Assembly (NCBI GenBank): GCA_017941355.1
Contig: JAGAWN010000016.1
Span: forward strand, 1-53,750
Direction: 5' to 3'
Origin: Ruminiclostridium sp.
Lineage (GTDB): Bacteria > Bacillota > Clostridia > Oscillospirales > Ruminococcaceae
DNA length: 53,750 nt
The notes under the pieces are model-generated. The model was not told where the DNA came from, made no database searches, and worked only from the letters and a program-made list of their open reading frames with translations. Within the stretch, counting starts at the first letter, position 1. The number at the start of each line of letters is the position of its first letter. The position numbers and the translations under genes are program-made. Below are positions 42,150 through 46,829 of this stretch, in pieces.

Positions 42150-44375
42150 TTACTCAAACGTGATCTGGTTTATATCCAGATCCGACATAGCGCCCGCCGA
42201 CGGTATCGTTTTGGAGAGGAATCTGTCCGGCTCCTCGATCATACCCTCGCTGTACGGAAGCGCACTTGCAAGCTCGGTCTTTGTGAGCCTCATTACCTGT
42301 ACGCCCTGCGTGTCACGCGCGGCTTTGGGCAGCACGAGAGCCGAGTTGAAAATGAGTATCTTCCCCGCCGCGGACTGCAGAATGAACTCCGTGTCCTCCG
42401 GCAGCTTGTACATAGCGATAAGCTCCGAGCCGTCGTAATACGCATTGGCAAGCTTCTTGCGCTTTGTCTTTGTTTCAAACGAGGACAGCGGGACTTTCGC
42501 GCACTTTCCGTTTTTGAAGAAAAGTATTATGTGTCCGGAGTAATCCTCGGTAGTTATCATTCTTATAATGCGTTCGCCCTGCTCCATTTCAAGCTTTGCG
42601 GGAACGTAGTCGCCCATGAGGCTCGCCTTGGTATCCGCAAAATCGTTGACGCAGGATTTATAAACCTGGAACTTGTCGGTAAAGAACAGCAGTTCGGTCT
42701 TTCCGGAAAGCTCCTGCTCAAAGATCATCTCATCGCCCTCTTTGAGCTTCTGCTCACCGCTCATGCGGAGCGACGCGGCAGTTATGCGCTTGAAGTAGCC
42801 CTCTGCGGTGAGGAAGCAGTTCACCGTGTAATCCGGGATCTTCTCCTCCTCTTCCTCGTCCTCGTCATCAAACGCCTGCGCAAACAGAGTGCGGCGGGGC
42901 TGTCCGTATTTCTCCGATATCTCGGTAAGCTCCTCGATGATGAGCTTCTTTATCTTGCGCGGAGATTCGAGAGTCTCTTCCATGTCCGCGATCTCGTTTT
43001 TGAGGTTGTCTATCTCGTCCGTGCGTTTGAGAATGTATTCGCGGTTGATATGACGCAGCTTGATCTCGGCTACATAATCCGCCTGCACCTCGTCGATACC
43101 GAAGCCTATCATAAGATTCGGAACTACCTCGGCTTCCTCGTCGGTCTCGCGGATTATCTTTATCGCCTTGTCGATGTCGAGCAGTATCTTTTTCAGTCCG
43201 AGCAGCAGGTGCAGCTTTTCTTTCTTCTTGCCAAGCTCGAAGTAGATCATGCGCTTCACACATTCCATGCGGAAGTCTATCCATTCCTGCAGTATCTCGT
43301 AAACGCCCATGACGCGGGGATTCCCCGCTATCAGAATGTTGAAGTTGCAGGAGAACGCGTCCTGCAGCGGTGTAAGACGGAACATCTTGCGCATGAACTC
43401 GTCCGGATCCTTGCCTTTTTTCAGGTCAAAGGTAAGCTTCAGACCGGACAGATCCGTCTCGTCACGGATATCGGATATCTCGTTGACCTTGCCGAGTTTG
43501 ACGAGTTCGAGAACTTTGTCCATTATCGCTTCCACCGTGGTGGTGGGCGGTATCTCGGTGACTTCTATGCAGCGGCTCTCCTTGTCGAACGTGTACTTTC
43601 CGCGCACGACTATGCTTCCGCGTCCGGTCTTATAGACTTTCTGCATTTCTTCCTCGTCATACACGATAAAACCGCCGCCGGGGAAATCGGGTCCCTGCAA
43701 AGTTGAGGAAACATCATGCTCCGGGTCTTTCATCATAGCTATCGTGGTGTCGCATATCTCGCGGAGATTGAAAGAGCAGATGTTGCTCGCCATCGAGACA
43801 GCGATACCGATGTTGTTGTTCACCAGCACAGACGGAAAGCGCACCGGGAACAGCACCGGCTCGGTGAGGGTGTTGTCGTAGTTGGGCATGAAATCCACAG
43901 CGTCCTTATCGATATCCGTGAACAGTTCGGCGCATATAGAGTCAAGCTTTGCCTCGGTGTAACGTGACGCGGCGTAGGACATATCCCGCGAGTACGCCTT
44001 GCCGAAGTTGCCCTTGCTGTCGATGTACGGGTGCAGCAGTGCGCCGTTGCCGCGGGCGAGACGCACCATTGTGGCATATATCGCCTGGTCGCCGTGGGGA
44101 TTGAGTTTCATGGTCTGACCGACGATGTTTGCTGACTTCGTGCGGTCGCCTTTGAGCAATCCCATGGTGTACATGGTATAGAGAAGCTTGCGGTGCGCGG
44201 GCTTGAAGCCGTCTATCTCCGGCAGCGCGCGGGACACGATGACGCTCATGGCGTAGGGCATATAGTTTTCTTCGAGGGTATCGACGATGTTCTTCTGCTC
44301 GACGATGCCTGCGCCCTCGATGTAAGCGTCAAGCTTTTTTGTTTTCGGAAGTTTTGGTTCTCTTTTCTTTTTCAT
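42150..44375 (-). CDS. parC: DNA topoisomerase IV subunit A (GyrA/ParC family)
   Basis: Type IIA topoisomerase breakage-reunion subunit, 741 residues. Winged helix with catalytic Tyr in AASRYTEAKL (about residue 138), the HRKLLYTMY and NPHGDQAIYATMVRLA blocks, tower and coiled-coil domains, an acidic patch (EDEEEEEK) near residue 515 and a C-terminal pinwheel-like domain. The C-terminal repeats lack a clear GyrA box, favouring ParC. It partners the ParE at 44829-46829. AAAGGAAA precedes the ATG. The gene is separated from parE by a toxin-antitoxin locus, so parE-parC read-through must pass that locus. Confidence 0.9.
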   Translation of the reverse strand: MKKKREPKLPKTKKLDAYIEGAGIVEQKNIVDTLEENYMPYAMSVIVSRALPEIDGFKPAHRKLLYTMYTMGLLKGDRTKSANIVGQTMKLNPHGDQAIYATMVRLARGNGALLHPYIDSKGNFGKAYSRDMSYAASRYTEAKLDSICAELFTDIDKDAVDFMPNYDNTLTEPVLFPVRFPSVLVNNNIGIAVSMASNICSFNLREICDTTIAMMKDPEHDVSSTLQGPDFPGGGFIVYDEEEMQKVYKTGRGSIVVRGKYTFDKESRCIEVTEIPPTTTVEAIMDKVLELVKLGKVNEISDIRDETDLSGLKLTFDLKKGKDPDEFMRKMFRLTPLQDAFSCNFNILIAGNPRVMGVYEILQEWIDFRMECVKRMIYFELGKKKEKLHLLLGLKKILLDIDKAIKIIRETDEEAEVVPNLMIGFGIDEVQADYVAEIKLRHINREYILKRTDEIDNLKNEIADMEETLESPRKIKKLIIEELTEISEKYGQPRRTLFAQAFDDEDEEEEEKIPDYTVNCFLTAEGYFKRITAASLRMSGEQKLKEGDEMIFEQELSGKTELLFFTDKFQVYKSCVNDFADTKASLMGDYVPAKLEMEQGERIIRMITTEDYSGHIILFFKNGKCAKVPLSSFETKTKRKKLANAYYDGSELIAMYKLPEDTEFILQSAAGKILIFNSALVLPKAARDTQGVQVMRLTKTELASALPYSEGMIEEPDRFLSKTIPSAGAMSDLDINQITFE

Positions 44376-44522
44376 GTTTATTTCCTTTGTTCCTGTATTT
44401 CTATATTGACAAATCTTATGAAATATGCTATACTTTAAACAGACAGAGCCCGACTGTTAAACGGTCGCTGCTCCCTTTATGATTATTTAGAAAATAACCG
44501 CCTCAGGGGCAATTGAGGGCGG
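44376..44522. other. Spacer upstream of parC with antisense RNA gene and shared terminator
   Basis: It contains the plus-strand promoter at 44406-44434, the antisense RNA body and the hairpin at 44490-44530. I could not identify a convincing minus-strand promoter for parC here, so parC may depend on transcription from parE or from the toxin promoter. Confidence 0.6.
44406..44434 (+). promoter_or_regulatory. Strong promoter of the putative antitoxin RNA
   Basis: TTGACA (44406-44411), 17-bp spacer, TATACT (44429-44434) with extended TGC, pointing toward the 3' end of the toxin gene. No open reading frame with a ribosome site follows, which fits an RNA gene. Confidence 0.8.
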
Positions 44523-44536
44523 TTATTTTCTTTTGC
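44441..44536 (+). ncRNA. Putative antisense antitoxin RNA (RatA-like arrangement)
   Basis: Transcript of roughly 95 bases predicted from the promoter at 44406-44434 to the hairpin terminator at 44490-44530. It begins with a small stem (CGACTG/CGGTCG, loop TTAAA, 44451-44467) and its 3' part is complementary to the end of the toxin mRNA, including the toxin stop codon at 44523-44525. The toxin and RNA genes converge and share a terminator, as in txpA/RatA of Bacillus subtilis. Coordinates of both ends are estimates. Confidence 0.65.
44490..44530. terminator. Shared bidirectional terminator of the toxin and antitoxin RNA
   Basis: A 13-bp perfect stem, 44490-44502 with 44518-44530. The last toxin codons and its stop lie in the right arm. 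A/T-rich arm ends give U-rich tails in both directions (TTATTTTCTTTT and the complement of ATTATTTAGAAAA). Confidence 0.85.
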
Positions 44537-44627
44537 CGTTGTCTTTAGCTCTGATAATAAGATTGATTATCGCACAGATAAGTATTCCAAGTTGGAGTAT
44601 CTGTTCAAGCGTAATGTACATAGACAT
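44523..44627 (-). CDS. Holin-like type I toxin, 34 residues
   Basis: A tiny membrane protein, too short for ordinary ORF searches: MSMYITLEQILQLGILICAI then INLIIRAKDNGKRK. One membrane helix (about residues 7-25) and a basic tail, the plan of putative holin-like toxins (TxpA/BsrG/Hol_Tox group), many of which begin MYxTLxxLLQLGI. AAGGAGAG lies 3-4 bases before ATG 44627 (a second ATG is at 44621). It has a consensus promoter at 44790-44818 and a leader of about 155 bases with several stems, which would favour translational control. A convergent antisense RNA gene lies at its 3' end. Confidence 0.8.
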   Translation of the reverse strand: MSMYITLEQILQLGILICAIINLIIRAKDNGKRK

Positions 44628-44783
44628 CACTCTCCTTATGTTATTAAGGGAGCGCGATGCCATGGCATCGGAAACGACCGCCTAACACGTTGTGGTCGGG
44701 CTTTGTCCGGACGTTGTACCTGCCCCTGCGGCAGAGTACAGGTCTCGCAGACTATTCAGTTGCAGCAGGTGAAACAGCCTGCT
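44628..44783 (-). other. Long structured leader of the toxin mRNA
   Basis: About 155 transcribed bases without an open frame. Visible stems are GCAGCAGG/CCTGCTGC (44762-44785), a CGACC/GGTCG stem in 44675-44700, and the perfect 16-bp palindrome CGATGCCATGGCATCG (44655-44670) close to the toxin ribosome site. Such leaders in type I toxins delay translation until processing. Confidence 0.65.
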
Positions 44784-44789
44784 GCATTT

Positions 44790-44818
44790 ATTATACCACA
44801 AACGCGGAATATTGTCAA
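44790..44818 (-). promoter_or_regulatory. Consensus promoter of the toxin mRNA
   Basis: Minus strand TTGACA (44813-44818), 17-bp spacer, TATAAT (44790-44795) with extended TGG. It lies just beyond the parE stop codon. Confidence 0.88.
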
Positions 44819-44828
44819 ATAAAGGGAC

Positions 44829-46829
44829 TCAGCTCAGATCGAGATCGTCAAGGTACTGACTGCCGAACTCGGCAATGTAGTCCTTGCGTCCCTGGAGGTT
44901 GTCGCCGAGAAGCAGGTCAAACATCTCCTGCGTTCTCACCGCGTCGGAGGGCAGCACCTTGATGAGCCGCCTTGTTTCGGGATTCATCGTGGTCAGAGAC
45001 ATCATCTCCGGCTCGTTCTCACCGAGACCTTTCGAGCGCTGAATGGTGTACTTCCTGTCGCCGATATCCGCGAGTATCTTCGTTTTCTCCGGCTCTGTGT
45101 AAGCGAAGTATGTGCGTTCCTTCGTATTTATCTCGTACAGCGGGGATTCCGCGATATATACAAGTCCCTCGCGTATCAGCGTGGGAGTTAGCCGGTACAG
45201 CATGGTAAGCACCAGCGTGCGTATCTGGAAACCGTCCACGTCGGCATCGGTGCATATAACTACCTTGTTCCAGCGCAGATTGTCAAGGCTGAAGCCGGAA
45301 AGATCCTTTGTCTTGTTCGCTTTGGAGGTTACTTCCACTCCGCAGCCGAGCACGCGTATCAGGTCTGTGATGATCTCGGACTTGAATATCTTGTCGTAGC
45401 CCGCTTTCAGGCAGTTGAGTATCTTTCCGCGTATCGGCATTACCGCCTGGTACTCCGAGTCGCGGGCGAGCTTTACCGAACCCAGCGCCGAATCGCCCTC
45501 CACGATGTATATCTCGCGCTTGCTGACGTCCTTGCTGCGGCAGTCAACGAACTTCTCCACGCGGTTGGAAAGATCGAGTGTACCGGTAAGCTTCTTCTTC
45601 ACTCCGGCGCGTATCTTGTCGGCATTCTCGCGGGCGCGCTTGTTTATGATGATCTGTTCGCAGATCTTCACCGCCTCGTCCGGGTTCTCGATGAAGTATA
45701 TCTCGATGCAGTGCTTGAGCCAGTCGCGCATTGCTTCGTAAACGAACTTGTTGGTGATCGATTTCTTCGTCTGGTTCTCGTAGCTGGTCTGCGTCGAGAA
45801 GTTGGAGGAGATGAACACAAGGCACTCTTCTATATCCGAGAACTTTATGGAGCTTTCGCCCTTGTTGTACTTGTTGGTGGATTTGAGATAGCTGTCTATC
45901 TGCGAAGTGAGTGCCTGCTGCATAGCCTTGTCGGGGCTTCCGCCGTGTTCGAGCCACGAAGAGTTGTGGTAATGCTCGACAAGCTTCACCTTGTTGGAGA
46001 AAGCCAGCGCTACGTGCAGCTTGACCTTGTACTCGTCCTTGTCCTCGCGGTCTTTGCCGACACGCTGGGCTGTCCAGTCCTGCGGAGTGCCGATAGCGGT
46101 ATCTCCCACGATCTCTTTAAGGTAGTCGGTAATGCCGTTCTCATAGCAGTATTCTTTTTCTTCAAACTCCCCGTCCTCATTCTCGGAGCGGTACACGAAC
46201 ACAAGTCCGTCATTCACTATAGACTGACGGCGCAGCACGTCGTCAAGGTAGTCGTCGCCTATGTCGATATCGGTGAACACATCGAGATCGGGCTTCCACT
46301 TTATGACCGTACCGGACTGACCGGTGGATTTCGTGCGTATGAATCCCTTGCCGTCCTTGTCGCCGGTAACGTTGAAGCCTTTCTCAAAGCGCAGGGAGTA
46401 GTGCCATGTCCCGTTGTCGGCTTCGACAGTCATGTACTCCGCGGCGAACTGCGTCGCGCAGAGACCGAGACCGTTGAGACCGAGGGCGAAGGAGTAGTTG
46501 TCACCGGAGTTGTTGTCGTACTTGCCGCCCGCGTAGAGGGTGCAGAACGCAAGCTCCCAGTTGTACTTGTCCTCGTTCTTGTTGAAATCTATCGGGATAC
46601 CGCGTCCCATGTCGGCAACTTCAAGCGACATATCCGCGAAACGCGTGATAGTTATGCGCTTGCCGTAGCCCTCGCGCGCTTCATCTATCGAGTTCGAGAG
46701 GATCTCAAACACGGAGTGGCGGCAGCCCTCTATGCCGTCAGAGCCGAAAATGACCGCAGGGCGTTTGCGCACCTGATCGGGTCCTTTGAGGGACTTTATA
46801 CTGTTGTCATCGTATGTTTTCTTTGCCAT
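44829..46829 (-). CDS. parE: DNA topoisomerase IV subunit B (GyrB/ParE family)
   Basis: ATPase subunit of the type IIA topoisomerase, 666 residues. GHKL ATPase motifs: EILSNSIDEAREG (Asn for Mg), VADMGRGIPID and GLNGLGLCATQF. Transducer domain follows, then TOPRIM with YIVEGDSALGS (EGDSA), CTDADVDG and a C-terminal QRSKGLGENEPE block. It pairs with ParC at 42150-44375. The promoter is at 46860-46888 and GGTG lies near the ATG. The missing long insert of Gram-negative GyrB and the pairing with a ParC-like subunit favour topoisomerase IV over gyrase. Confidence 0.92.
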   Translation of the reverse strand: MAKKTYDDNSIKSLKGPDQVRKRPAVIFGSDGIEGCRHSVFEILSNSIDEAREGYGKRITITRFADMSLEVADMGRGIPIDFNKNEDKYNWELAFCTLYAGGKYDNNSGDNYSFALGLNGLGLCATQFAAEYMTVEADNGTWHYSLRFEKGFNVTGDKDGKGFIRTKSTGQSGTVIKWKPDLDVFTDIDIGDDYLDDVLRRQSIVNDGLVFVYRSENEDGEFEEKEYCYENGITDYLKEIVGDTAIGTPQDWTAQRVGKDREDKDEYKVKLHVALAFSNKVKLVEHYHNSSWLEHGGSPDKAMQQALTSQIDSYLKSTNKYNKGESSIKFSDIEECLVFISSNFSTQTSYENQTKKSITNKFVYEAMRDWLKHCIEIYFIENPDEAVKICEQIIINKRARENADKIRAGVKKKLTGTLDLSNRVEKFVDCRSKDVSKREIYIVEGDSALGSVKLARDSEYQAVMPIRGKILNCLKAGYDKIFKSEIITDLIRVLGCGVEVTSKANKTKDLSGFSLDNLRWNKVVICTDADVDGFQIRTLVLTMLYRLTPTLIREGLVYIAESPLYEINTKERTYFAYTEPEKTKILADIGDRKYTIQRSKGLGENEPEMMSLTTMNPETRRLIKVLPSDAVRTQEMFDLLLGDNLQGRKDYIAEFGSQYLDDLDLS

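What the first reader, a model, noticed from the sequence alone, without database searches (positions are those of the whole stretch)
44406..44818. Unannotated type I toxin-antitoxin locus between parE and parC
Seen directly: a 34-codon membrane peptide with a strong ribosome site, a full consensus promoter (TTGACA-17-TATAAT), a leader of about 155 bases with stems, and a second strong promoter (TTGACA-17-TATACT) on the other strand that points into the toxin's 3' end. Both transcripts would end at one 13-bp hairpin that overlaps the toxin stop codon. Established: txpA/RatA-type loci have this convergent design and holin-like toxins of this size. Inference: a chromosomal type I module sits inside a topoisomerase IV gene pair, and may affect parC transcription by read-through or interference.
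Basis: partly seen in the sequence, partly recalled or inferred. Interest (0 to 1): 0.78.

Follow-up and report, generated by a model that had tools for sequence, protein, structure and literature searches.

The report
Gut-bacterial toxin with leader-mimicking antitoxin RNA
Between two DNA-winding genes of a gut bacterium sits a small membrane-peptide toxin gene with an opposing RNA antitoxin, a cassette of a large, apparently undescribed family in which the antitoxin RNA begins with a look-alike of the toxin message's own leader.

Summary
In detail: a 34-codon hydrophobic peptide, two near-perfect convergent promoters and one shared 14-bp hairpin containing the stop codon. It is a type I toxin-antitoxin-like cassette inserted between parE and parC; none of 29 relatives' stretches holds it there. 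It belongs to a large family that Rfam does not match: its RNA model hits 76 of 245 genomes of the order, sometimes in tandem arrays. It is not simply txpA/RatA or Fst: the predicted RNAs overlap only around the terminator, and Fst-type direct repeats were not found. Instead the antitoxin RNA starts with a same-sense look-alike of its own toxin's leader, closer to its own leader than to foreign ones on average (z 17.6, 79 loci; z 16.0, 36 further loci). Promoters are not coupled, so selection on RNA is likelier than gene conversion. In 22 of 32 short-leader loci the match starts at the predicted mRNA 5' end; in the window it lies 76 nt inside. Many antitoxin terminator loops carry a U-turn-like motif, so repression probably begins by loop kissing (inferred). 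What the look-alike does is unsettled; transcripts, toxicity and effects on parC are untested.

The parts
44790..44818 (-). toxin promoter: -35 TTGACA 44818-44813, -10 TATAAT 44795-44790, extended TG
   Evidence: 12 of 12 matches; sequence
44486..44783 (-). predicted toxin mRNA: leader of about 156 nt, coding region, terminator (both ends inferred from promoter and hairpin)
   Evidence: fold z -5.2; ends not mapped
44670..44707 (-). leader segment that resembles the antitoxin 5' end in sense (GACAAAGCCCGAC..GTGTTAGGCGGTCGTTTCC), starting 76 nt into the predicted mRNA; contains GGCGGT, which could pair with the terminator arm ACCGCC
   Evidence: alignment; score 31 against at most 23 for the other 78 leaders of the set; 3 of 2000 shuffled antitoxins reach it
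44630..44654 (-). Shine-Dalgarno AAGGAGAG with upstream CGCTCCCTTA, predicted to lock it in a hairpin of about 10 bp in the full-length fold
   Evidence: sequence
44523..44627 (-). toxin open reading frame, 34 codons (32 from the second ATG at 44621); hydrophobic stretch by eye, basic C-terminus KRK
   Evidence: weak Hol_Tox (14.6 bits, cut-off 23.3) and PepG1 (19.4 bits, cut-off 70)
44489..44531 (.). shared bidirectional terminator-like hairpin, arms of 14 bp; contains the toxin stop codon
   Evidence: in the family 11 of 13 consensus stem pairs show at least one both-sided change that keeps the pair
44441..44538 (+). predicted antitoxin RNA, about 98 nt
   Evidence: fold z -4.3; R1 model match 66 bits (the model was built partly from this sequence)
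44446..44473 (+). antitoxin 5' hairpin, same-sense look-alike of leader segment 44670-44707
   Evidence: 5' halves of the family fold better than shuffles, mean z -2.3, 62 sequences
44406..44434 (+). antitoxin promoter TTGACA-17-TATACT with TG
   Evidence: 11 of 12 matches
44404..44822 (.). whole cassette, roughly from one -35 box to the other; absent from the parE-parC gap of relatives
   Evidence: exact ends inferred by eye, target-site duplications not tested

Best explanation
A chromosomal type I toxin-antitoxin cassette of a large, apparently undescribed family. The minus strand makes a short mRNA for a 32-34-residue membrane peptide whose ribosome site is locked in a leader hairpin. The plus strand makes a roughly 98-nt antitoxin RNA. 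The two meet at the shared terminator: complementary loops kiss, helped in most family members by a U-turn-like motif, the stems melt into a duplex of about 45-50 bp that covers the stop codon, and the mRNA is destroyed (RNase III-like) or kept silent. The antitoxin's 5' half is a same-sense look-alike of the toxin leader. I think it is a strand-exchange element: its 3' arm, ending in an anti-Shine-Dalgarno CUCCC, can pair with the leader's purine-rich segment once the terminator tethers the two RNAs. Shown by computation: architecture, recurrence, the look-alike and its absence from the promoters. Inferred: transcription, toxicity, kissing, degradation, strand exchange. The confidence given is for the type I cassette as a whole; for strand exchange alone I would say about 0.35.
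For: Architecture in the window. Family: 80 loci pass the filters; 53 of 71 genus genomes match the 8-peptide profile at E<=1 (the weakest look like chance); 76 of 245 order genomes match RNA model R1 at E<=0.001; of 48 further loci given to the layout detector, 36 gave a full layout. Terminator: 11 of 13 pairs with both-sided changes. Loops: TTTG/TTGG in 49 of 79 against 12.7 +- 3.2 in shuffles, YUNR in 71 of 79 against 52.5 +- 4.2. Look-alike: z 19.6 in 80 loci, 17.6 in 79, 17.2 in 44 records, 16.0 in 36 after removing overlaps, with complement control z 0.8. First 26 nt after the -10 box z 11.8, promoter spacer -0.2, upstream 0.4 (44 loci); for the 32 short-leader loci 10.8, -0.4 and 0.0. 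Antitoxin 3' arm x leader 5' segment: own pairs better than exchanged, z -3.9, 57 loci. Two loci of a second peptide class in this genome show the look-alike.
Against: No RNA or toxicity data. Strand exchange is not favoured by energies of the free 5' parts (own against foreign z 0.45); complementarity tests give z 1.2 and 0.8. The 57 loci were preselected for similarity, which makes z -3.9 partly circular. Where leader and antitoxin differ at stem positions, 32 of 89 (5' arm) and 27 of 80 (3' arm) still pair, no sign of compensation. The look-alike includes unpaired 5' bases (65% against 33%). The own leader is the best or tied best in only 26 of 79 and 22 of 36 loci, since related loci share types. 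The ribosome site is clearly closed (mean unpaired probability below 0.3) in only 52% of 79 leaders. In the window the U-turn-like UUGA lies in the predicted stem, and the look-alike is internal. Relatedness of loci overstates all z values; R1 E-values are rough.
Confidence: 0.8

Rival explanations
1. The look-alike is a 5'-3' lock of the toxin mRNA itself. A toxin transcript that reads past the shared terminator carries the complement of the antitoxin at its 3' end, and since the leader resembles the antitoxin, this tail folds back on the leader (as fbi/tac in hok, recalled) and is freed by 3' trimming.
For: Explains why the match covers unpaired bases too. Leader-antitoxin differences are more often A>G or C>T (196) than G>A or T>C (48), as G-U pairing between leader and tail would allow; 131 against 46 without the RRCGG motif (87 loci).
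Against: Needs read-through of a strong hairpin. The asymmetry is weak at stem positions (28 against 18 and 23 against 10), and A-rich antitoxin loops explain part of it. No coupling in the linker next to the hairpin (z 0.9).
Confidence: 0.3
2. The look-alike has no pairing role: the antitoxin arose by inverted duplication of the toxin leader and gene conversion keeps them alike, or both need the same 5' end for RNA stability.
For: Tandem arrays show that the cassettes duplicate (G014:C1, G215:C35). In 22 of 32 short-leader loci both RNAs start with the same segment.
Against: Promoter spacers and upstream DNA are not coupled. A difference is kept: GGCGG in 67 of 93 leaders and 0 of 93 antitoxin 5' halves. 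In long-leader loci such as the window the match is 34-87 nt inside the mRNA in 11 of 12, which a 5'-end stability signal does not predict. One genome, G001, holds three types of element, each best matched by a leader of its own type (6 loci).
Confidence: 0.25
3. A typical par/Fst-type locus, with direct repeats that place the antitoxin on the ribosome site.
For: Convergent promoters, shared terminator, sequestered ribosome site; in the window the antitoxin linker resembles the complement of the Shine-Dalgarno region.
Against: That window match is reached by 329 of 2000 shuffles. Linker or arm complementarity to the own leader does not exceed foreign pairs in 79 loci (z -1.7 to 1.2).
Confidence: 0.08
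4. A chance ORF beside a terminator: a regulatory RNA or attenuator of parC without a toxin.
For: No expression data; in this genome it lies upstream of parC.
Against: Not found at that place in any of 29 relatives; short hydrophobic ORFs ending in basic residues recur at the same position in 80 filtered loci, with a mean column identity of 28% in 42 of the peptides. The detector itself asked for hydrophobic ORFs and the filter for basic ends, so part of this is by selection.
Confidence: 0.05

Closest known systems
par (Fst, RNA I/RNA II) of pAD1 and its chromosomal relatives
   Same: Membrane peptide of 33 residues with charged C-terminal tail, convergent promoters, bidirectional terminator as a main site of complementarity, ribosome site locked in a leader hairpin, U-turn loop at the terminator (PMC7472228, passages; PMC4147584, passages)
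   Different: No direct repeats complementary to the ribosome site found; instead a same-sense look-alike. RNA II is about 40 nt, here about 98 nt predicted. The window peptide has no proline, so no PXXXG motif. The U-turn-like motif is on the antitoxin strand.
txpA/RatA, bsrG/SR4, bsrE/SR5 of Bacillus subtilis
   Same: Convergent mRNA and antisense RNA that meet at their 3' ends, small hydrophobic toxin, ribosome site partly sequestered; bsrE and SR5 have U-turn loops (PMC7430163, passages)
   Different: Overlaps given there are about 75 nt (txpA, PMC4147584) or 114-120 nt (PMC7430163) and antitoxins 163-222 nt; here about 50 and 98 nt predicted. RatA loops have no U-turn. Peptide below the Hol_Tox cut-off. 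A look-alike 5' end is not mentioned in the passages I saw.
sprG1/sprF1 (toxin PepG1) of Staphylococcus aureus
   Same: Only NCBIfam match of the window peptide, E 0.00058; 4 of 42 family peptides match at E<=0.1, best 4.6e-6
   Different: Window score 19.4 bits against a cut-off of 70; 34 residues against a model of 47
Type I modules of Clostridioides difficile (CD2517.1-RCd8 and others)
   Same: Convergent toxin and antitoxin genes in Clostridia (PMC6563280, passages)
   Different: Toxins of 50-53 residues and long complementary regions; the word beginnings ruminococc and oscillospir do not occur in that review's main text

Membership tests
Type I toxin-antitoxin system (general) | Small hydrophobic peptide encoded opposite an antisense RNA with its own promoter | tested here: met
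   as predicted from sequence; recurs in the family
Type I toxin-antitoxin system (general) | Peptide is toxic and the RNA prevents it | not testable with these tools
   needs expression experiments
par/Fst | Convergent promoters and shared bidirectional terminator | tested here: met
par/Fst | Direct repeats (DRa, DRb) giving complementarity at the ribosome site and start codon | tested here: not met
   (79 loci, z -1.7 to 1.2); window match reached by 329 of 2000 shuffles
par/Fst | U-turn (YUNR) motif in the terminator loop | tested here: inconclusive
   YUNR in 71 of 79 antitoxin loops against 52.5 +- 4.2 by chance; in the window it falls in the predicted stem. PMC7472228 notes that not all Fst relatives have it.
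par/Fst | Fst peptide with PXXXG motif | tested here: not met
   window peptide has no proline
txpA/RatA type (Hol_Tox, PF16935) | Peptide reaches the curated Hol_Tox cut-off | tested here: not met
   14.6 bits against 23.3; 8 of 42 family peptides match at E<=0.1, best 0.0058
txpA/RatA type (Hol_Tox, PF16935) | Antitoxin pairs with a long 3' stretch of the toxin mRNA beyond the terminator | tested here: not met
   predicted overlap about 44486-44538, hairpin plus a few codons; RNA ends not mapped
PepG1 (NF041589) | Score above the curated cut-off | tested here: not met
   19.4 bits against 70
Known Rfam RNA families | Match at the gathering score | tested here: not met
   0 matches in the window and 0 in 14 family loci; best weak match ctRNA_p42d 24.6 bits against 50

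The most novel reading that the evidence does not exclude
A large type I toxin-antitoxin family of Ruminococcus-like gut bacteria in which the antitoxin is partly a mimic: its 5' half copies the target's own leader in sense, is kept matched locus by locus by selection on RNA, and switches the toxin mRNA by exchanging hairpin strands (or by mirroring a 5'-3' fold-back lock of the mRNA), while the terminator loop supplies recognition.
Probability: 0.4. Interest if true: 0.82.

Novelty: new variant of a known kind. Interest (0 to 1): 0.62.

Why it matters
The RNA model hits 76 of 245 genomes of a major gut order, often several times per genome, so a frequent class of toxin genes and small RNAs there probably goes unannotated: Rfam has no match in the window or in 14 family loci, and the best family hits of 42 peptides are weak (Hol_Tox E 0.0058, PepG1 E 4.6e-6). 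A sense look-alike kept in step with its target is not mentioned in the passages on type I antitoxins that I saw, and poses a clear, testable question about how such an RNA acts. Arrays with like peptides and different terminator loops offer a natural experiment on how related antitoxins stay apart.

Tried and rejected
Fst-like direct repeats: suggested, rejected. Direct antitoxin-leader pairing as the source of locus specificity: duplex energies -26.4 own against -25.1 foreign, but own pairs beat only 52% of foreign ones and a few tandem loci drive the mean; alignment z 1.2; cofolding z 0.45. Leader-terminator 5'-3' pairing: the leader motif GGCGG fits the arm CCGCC (67 of 93 leaders, 78 of 93 terminators) but shows no covariation (z -1.1); left open. 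Compensation test of strand exchange: no support. Literature: the searches listed no paper whose title or abstract start names such a family; only open-licence PMC papers are held, and one search showed 15 of 51 papers. Phage and plasmid collections: no similar DNA. PADLOC: no match for 3 peptides. PHROGs: 4 of 42 peptides match a holin family, best E 0.00014, the window peptide none. NCBIfam also gave weak ComI hits for 5 of 42 peptides, best E 0.0081.

Rows dropped: one search gave 93 candidates, some plainly spurious ORFs; 80 passed the filters (antitoxin promoter 40-64 bases from the hairpin, score 11 or more, basic C-terminus), so near-perfect promoters are partly a result of selection. 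79 remained, 57, 50, 52, 90 of 93, 87 of 93. One search examined 48 loci and got 44 records from 36; 8 records overlapped the first set or one another, and without them has 36. One search found no antitoxin promoter by its pattern in 4 of 7 loci of the genome (C199, C297, two at C95), which were not tested there.

Full report
1. What is there. On the minus strand, 44818-44790 is a 12-of-12 promoter (TTGACA-17-TATAAT, extended TG), followed by a leader of about 156 nt, a ribosome site AAGGAGAG, a 34-codon ORF (44627-44523) and a hairpin with perfect 14-bp arms (44489-44502, 44518-44531) that contains the stop codon. The ribosome site is 2 bases from the first ATG and 8 from the second (44621), so the peptide may have 32 residues. 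On the plus strand an 11-of-12 promoter (44406-44434) starts a predicted RNA of about 98 nt that ends at the same hairpin. The promoter scan found 7 sites in 3 kb against 2.2 +- 1.4 in shuffles; these are its two best. Predicted folds: antitoxin z -4.3; toxin mRNA z -5.2, ribosome site in a hairpin of about 10 bp.

2. Place. parE ends at 44829 and parC starts at 44375 (named by their sequence, recalled). The parC search hit 41 of 41 genomes; the best 30 places became loci. In 26 of these 30, the window among them, parE was found on the same stretch, with gaps of 19 to 1125 bases. RNA model R1 finds the cassette in the window's locus and in none of the 29 others at E<=1. The four closest relatives (89 to 94% over the parC query) have gaps of 57, 268, 36 and 40 bases. 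So the cassette was most likely inserted here, with ends near the two -35 boxes. Other relatives carry other things in this gap: an HD-domain protein (checked in L049; four more look alike by eye) and, in L060, a Phd/YefM-ParE type II pair on the opposite strand.

3. Family. A second copy lies in the same genome at C199, near a gene that I take for lepA by eye. The 8-peptide profile A1 matches 53 of 71 genomes of the genus at E<=1, including weak chance hits. Sixty regions were fetched. A detector for the whole layout gave 93 candidates; 80 passed filters. An RNA model of the antitoxin (52 sequences; its structure holds the terminator only) matches 76 of 245 genomes of the order at E<=0.001, in 49 of 126 genera. 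Copies can stand in tandem, e.g. G014:C1:291061-292498 and G215:C35. A pattern scan of named genomes gave 22 stretches: 21 from Ruminococcus, Pseudoruminococcus, Ruminiclostridium, Ruminococcaceae, Oscillospiraceae or 'Clostridia', one labelled Gammaproteobacteria. Rfam has no match in the window or in 14 family loci. Of 42 peptides, 8 touch Hol_Tox at E<=0.1 (best 0.0058), 4 PepG1 (best 4.6e-6) and 5 ComI (best 0.0081); the window peptide is below the Hol_Tox and PepG1 cut-offs.

4. Terminator. In the antitoxin alignment 11 of 13 terminator pairs have at least one sequence with changes on both sides that keep the pair. The antitoxin loop is enriched in TTTG/TTGG, 49 of 79 against 12.7 +- 3.2 in shuffles, and in YUNR, 71 of 79 against 52.5 +- 4.2. 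This resembles the U-turn loops of Fst RNA I (PMC7472228, passages) and of bsrE/SR5 (PMC7430163, passages). In the window itself the motif lies in the predicted stem.

5. The look-alike. The first 35 or so bases of the antitoxin resemble the toxin leader in the same sense, not as complement. Own leader: mean local score 25.9; exchanged leaders: 17.5 (z 19.6, 80 loci). With stricter scoring z is 17.6 for sense, 1.2 for complement and -1.4 for the reversed control (79 loci). In 44 records from 36 of 48 further loci z is 17.2; after removal of overlaps and repeats 36 loci give z 16.0, 0 of 5000 permutations reaching it, complement z 0.8. The own leader is best or tied in 26 of 79 and 22 of 36 loci, since relatives share types. 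In the window the own leader scores 31, the best of the 78 others 23, and 3 of 2000 shuffled antitoxins reach 31. Relatedness among loci inflates the z values.

6. Where it sits. In the antitoxin the match begins within the first few bases in most loci. In the toxin mRNA it begins within 3 nt of the predicted start in 22 of 32 loci with leaders up to 100 nt; in 11 of 12 with longer leaders, the window included (76 nt), it begins 34 to 87 nt inside. Transcription starts are inferred from promoters.

7. RNA or DNA level. Between the two promoters of a locus the spacers (z -0.2) and upstream DNA (z 0.4) are not coupled, while the first 26 bases after the -10 box are (z 11.8; 44 loci); for the 32 short-leader loci the figures are -0.4, 0.0 and 10.8. 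GGCGG occurs in 67 of 93 leaders and in 0 of 93 antitoxin 5' halves; [AG]ACGG in 73 of 93 antitoxins and 46 of 93 leaders. A sharp edge and a kept difference speak against simple gene conversion. The GGCGG of the leader fits the terminator arm CCGCC (78 of 93); the antitoxin may avoid it so as not to disturb its own terminator (inference; no covariation, z -1.1). In genome G001 three types of 5' end occur in six loci, and each antitoxin's best-scoring leader is of its own type. In arrays with like peptides the 5' ends are alike while loops and linkers differ, so recognition between paralogs probably rests on the loops.

8. What the look-alike does. Antitoxin 5' halves fold into a hairpin better than shuffles (mean z -2.3, 48 of 62 below -1.64); the homologous leader stretch folds less well (-5.0 against -9.4 kcal/mol, 52 loci). 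The antitoxin 3' arm pairs better with its own leader's 5' segment than with foreign ones (z -3.9), while the leader's own two arms show no such fit (z 0.8) (57 loci preselected for similarity; leader 3' arm crudely defined). This suggests strand exchange. Against it: no preference in cofolding (z 0.45), no compensation at changed stem positions (32 of 89 and 27 of 80), and coupling of unpaired bases. The rival, a fold-back lock with a read-through tail, fits the excess of A>G and C>T differences (196 against 48; 131 against 46 without the motif), though base composition explains part. I lean slightly to strand exchange and do not claim it.

9. Verdict. A type I toxin-antitoxin cassette (0.8, by conservation), a new variant: Fst-like in layout and size, without Fst's direct repeats or PXXXG motif, and with a look-alike 5' half that I did not find described in the passages read or in the listings. 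The parE-parC setting looks incidental.

Noticed in passing
own genome G000: C142:50561, C297:43191, C95:1857 and 2315, C288:7196 (loci L214-L218): Five further R1 matches (E 4e-5 to 8e-4) with terminator arm AACCACC; C142, C297 and C288 show a second class of peptides (e.g. ..LLNHIGEAIHIVILNASGLGALIILTRDRFGRKKK). At C142 and C288 the look-alike is also present and includes the near-palindrome GCTCCCGGAGC or GCTCTCGGAGC.
   Followed up: partly
L060 2174-2735: In one relative the parE-parC gap holds a Phd/YefM-ParE type II toxin-antitoxin pair on the opposite strand: the gap seems to accept different insertions.
   Followed up: partly
L049 1014-1484 and the gaps of L050, L051, L054, L056: The parE-parC gap of several relatives encodes an HD-domain protein (Pfam HD, E 2.3e-10 for L049; the other four by gap length and eye only).
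   Followed up: partly
G014:C1:290982-292418, G215:C35:186-3604: Tandem arrays of the cassette; in G014 like peptides go with different terminator loops and linkers.
   Followed up: partly
window 44621-44627: Two in-frame ATG codons; spacing to the ribosome site and the start MYITL of many relatives favour the second, giving 32 residues.
   Followed up: partly
L169 1306-1353: The antitoxin pattern also hits a contig labelled Gammaproteobacteria MAG, perhaps a misbinned contig or a chance match; it gave no record.
   Followed up: no
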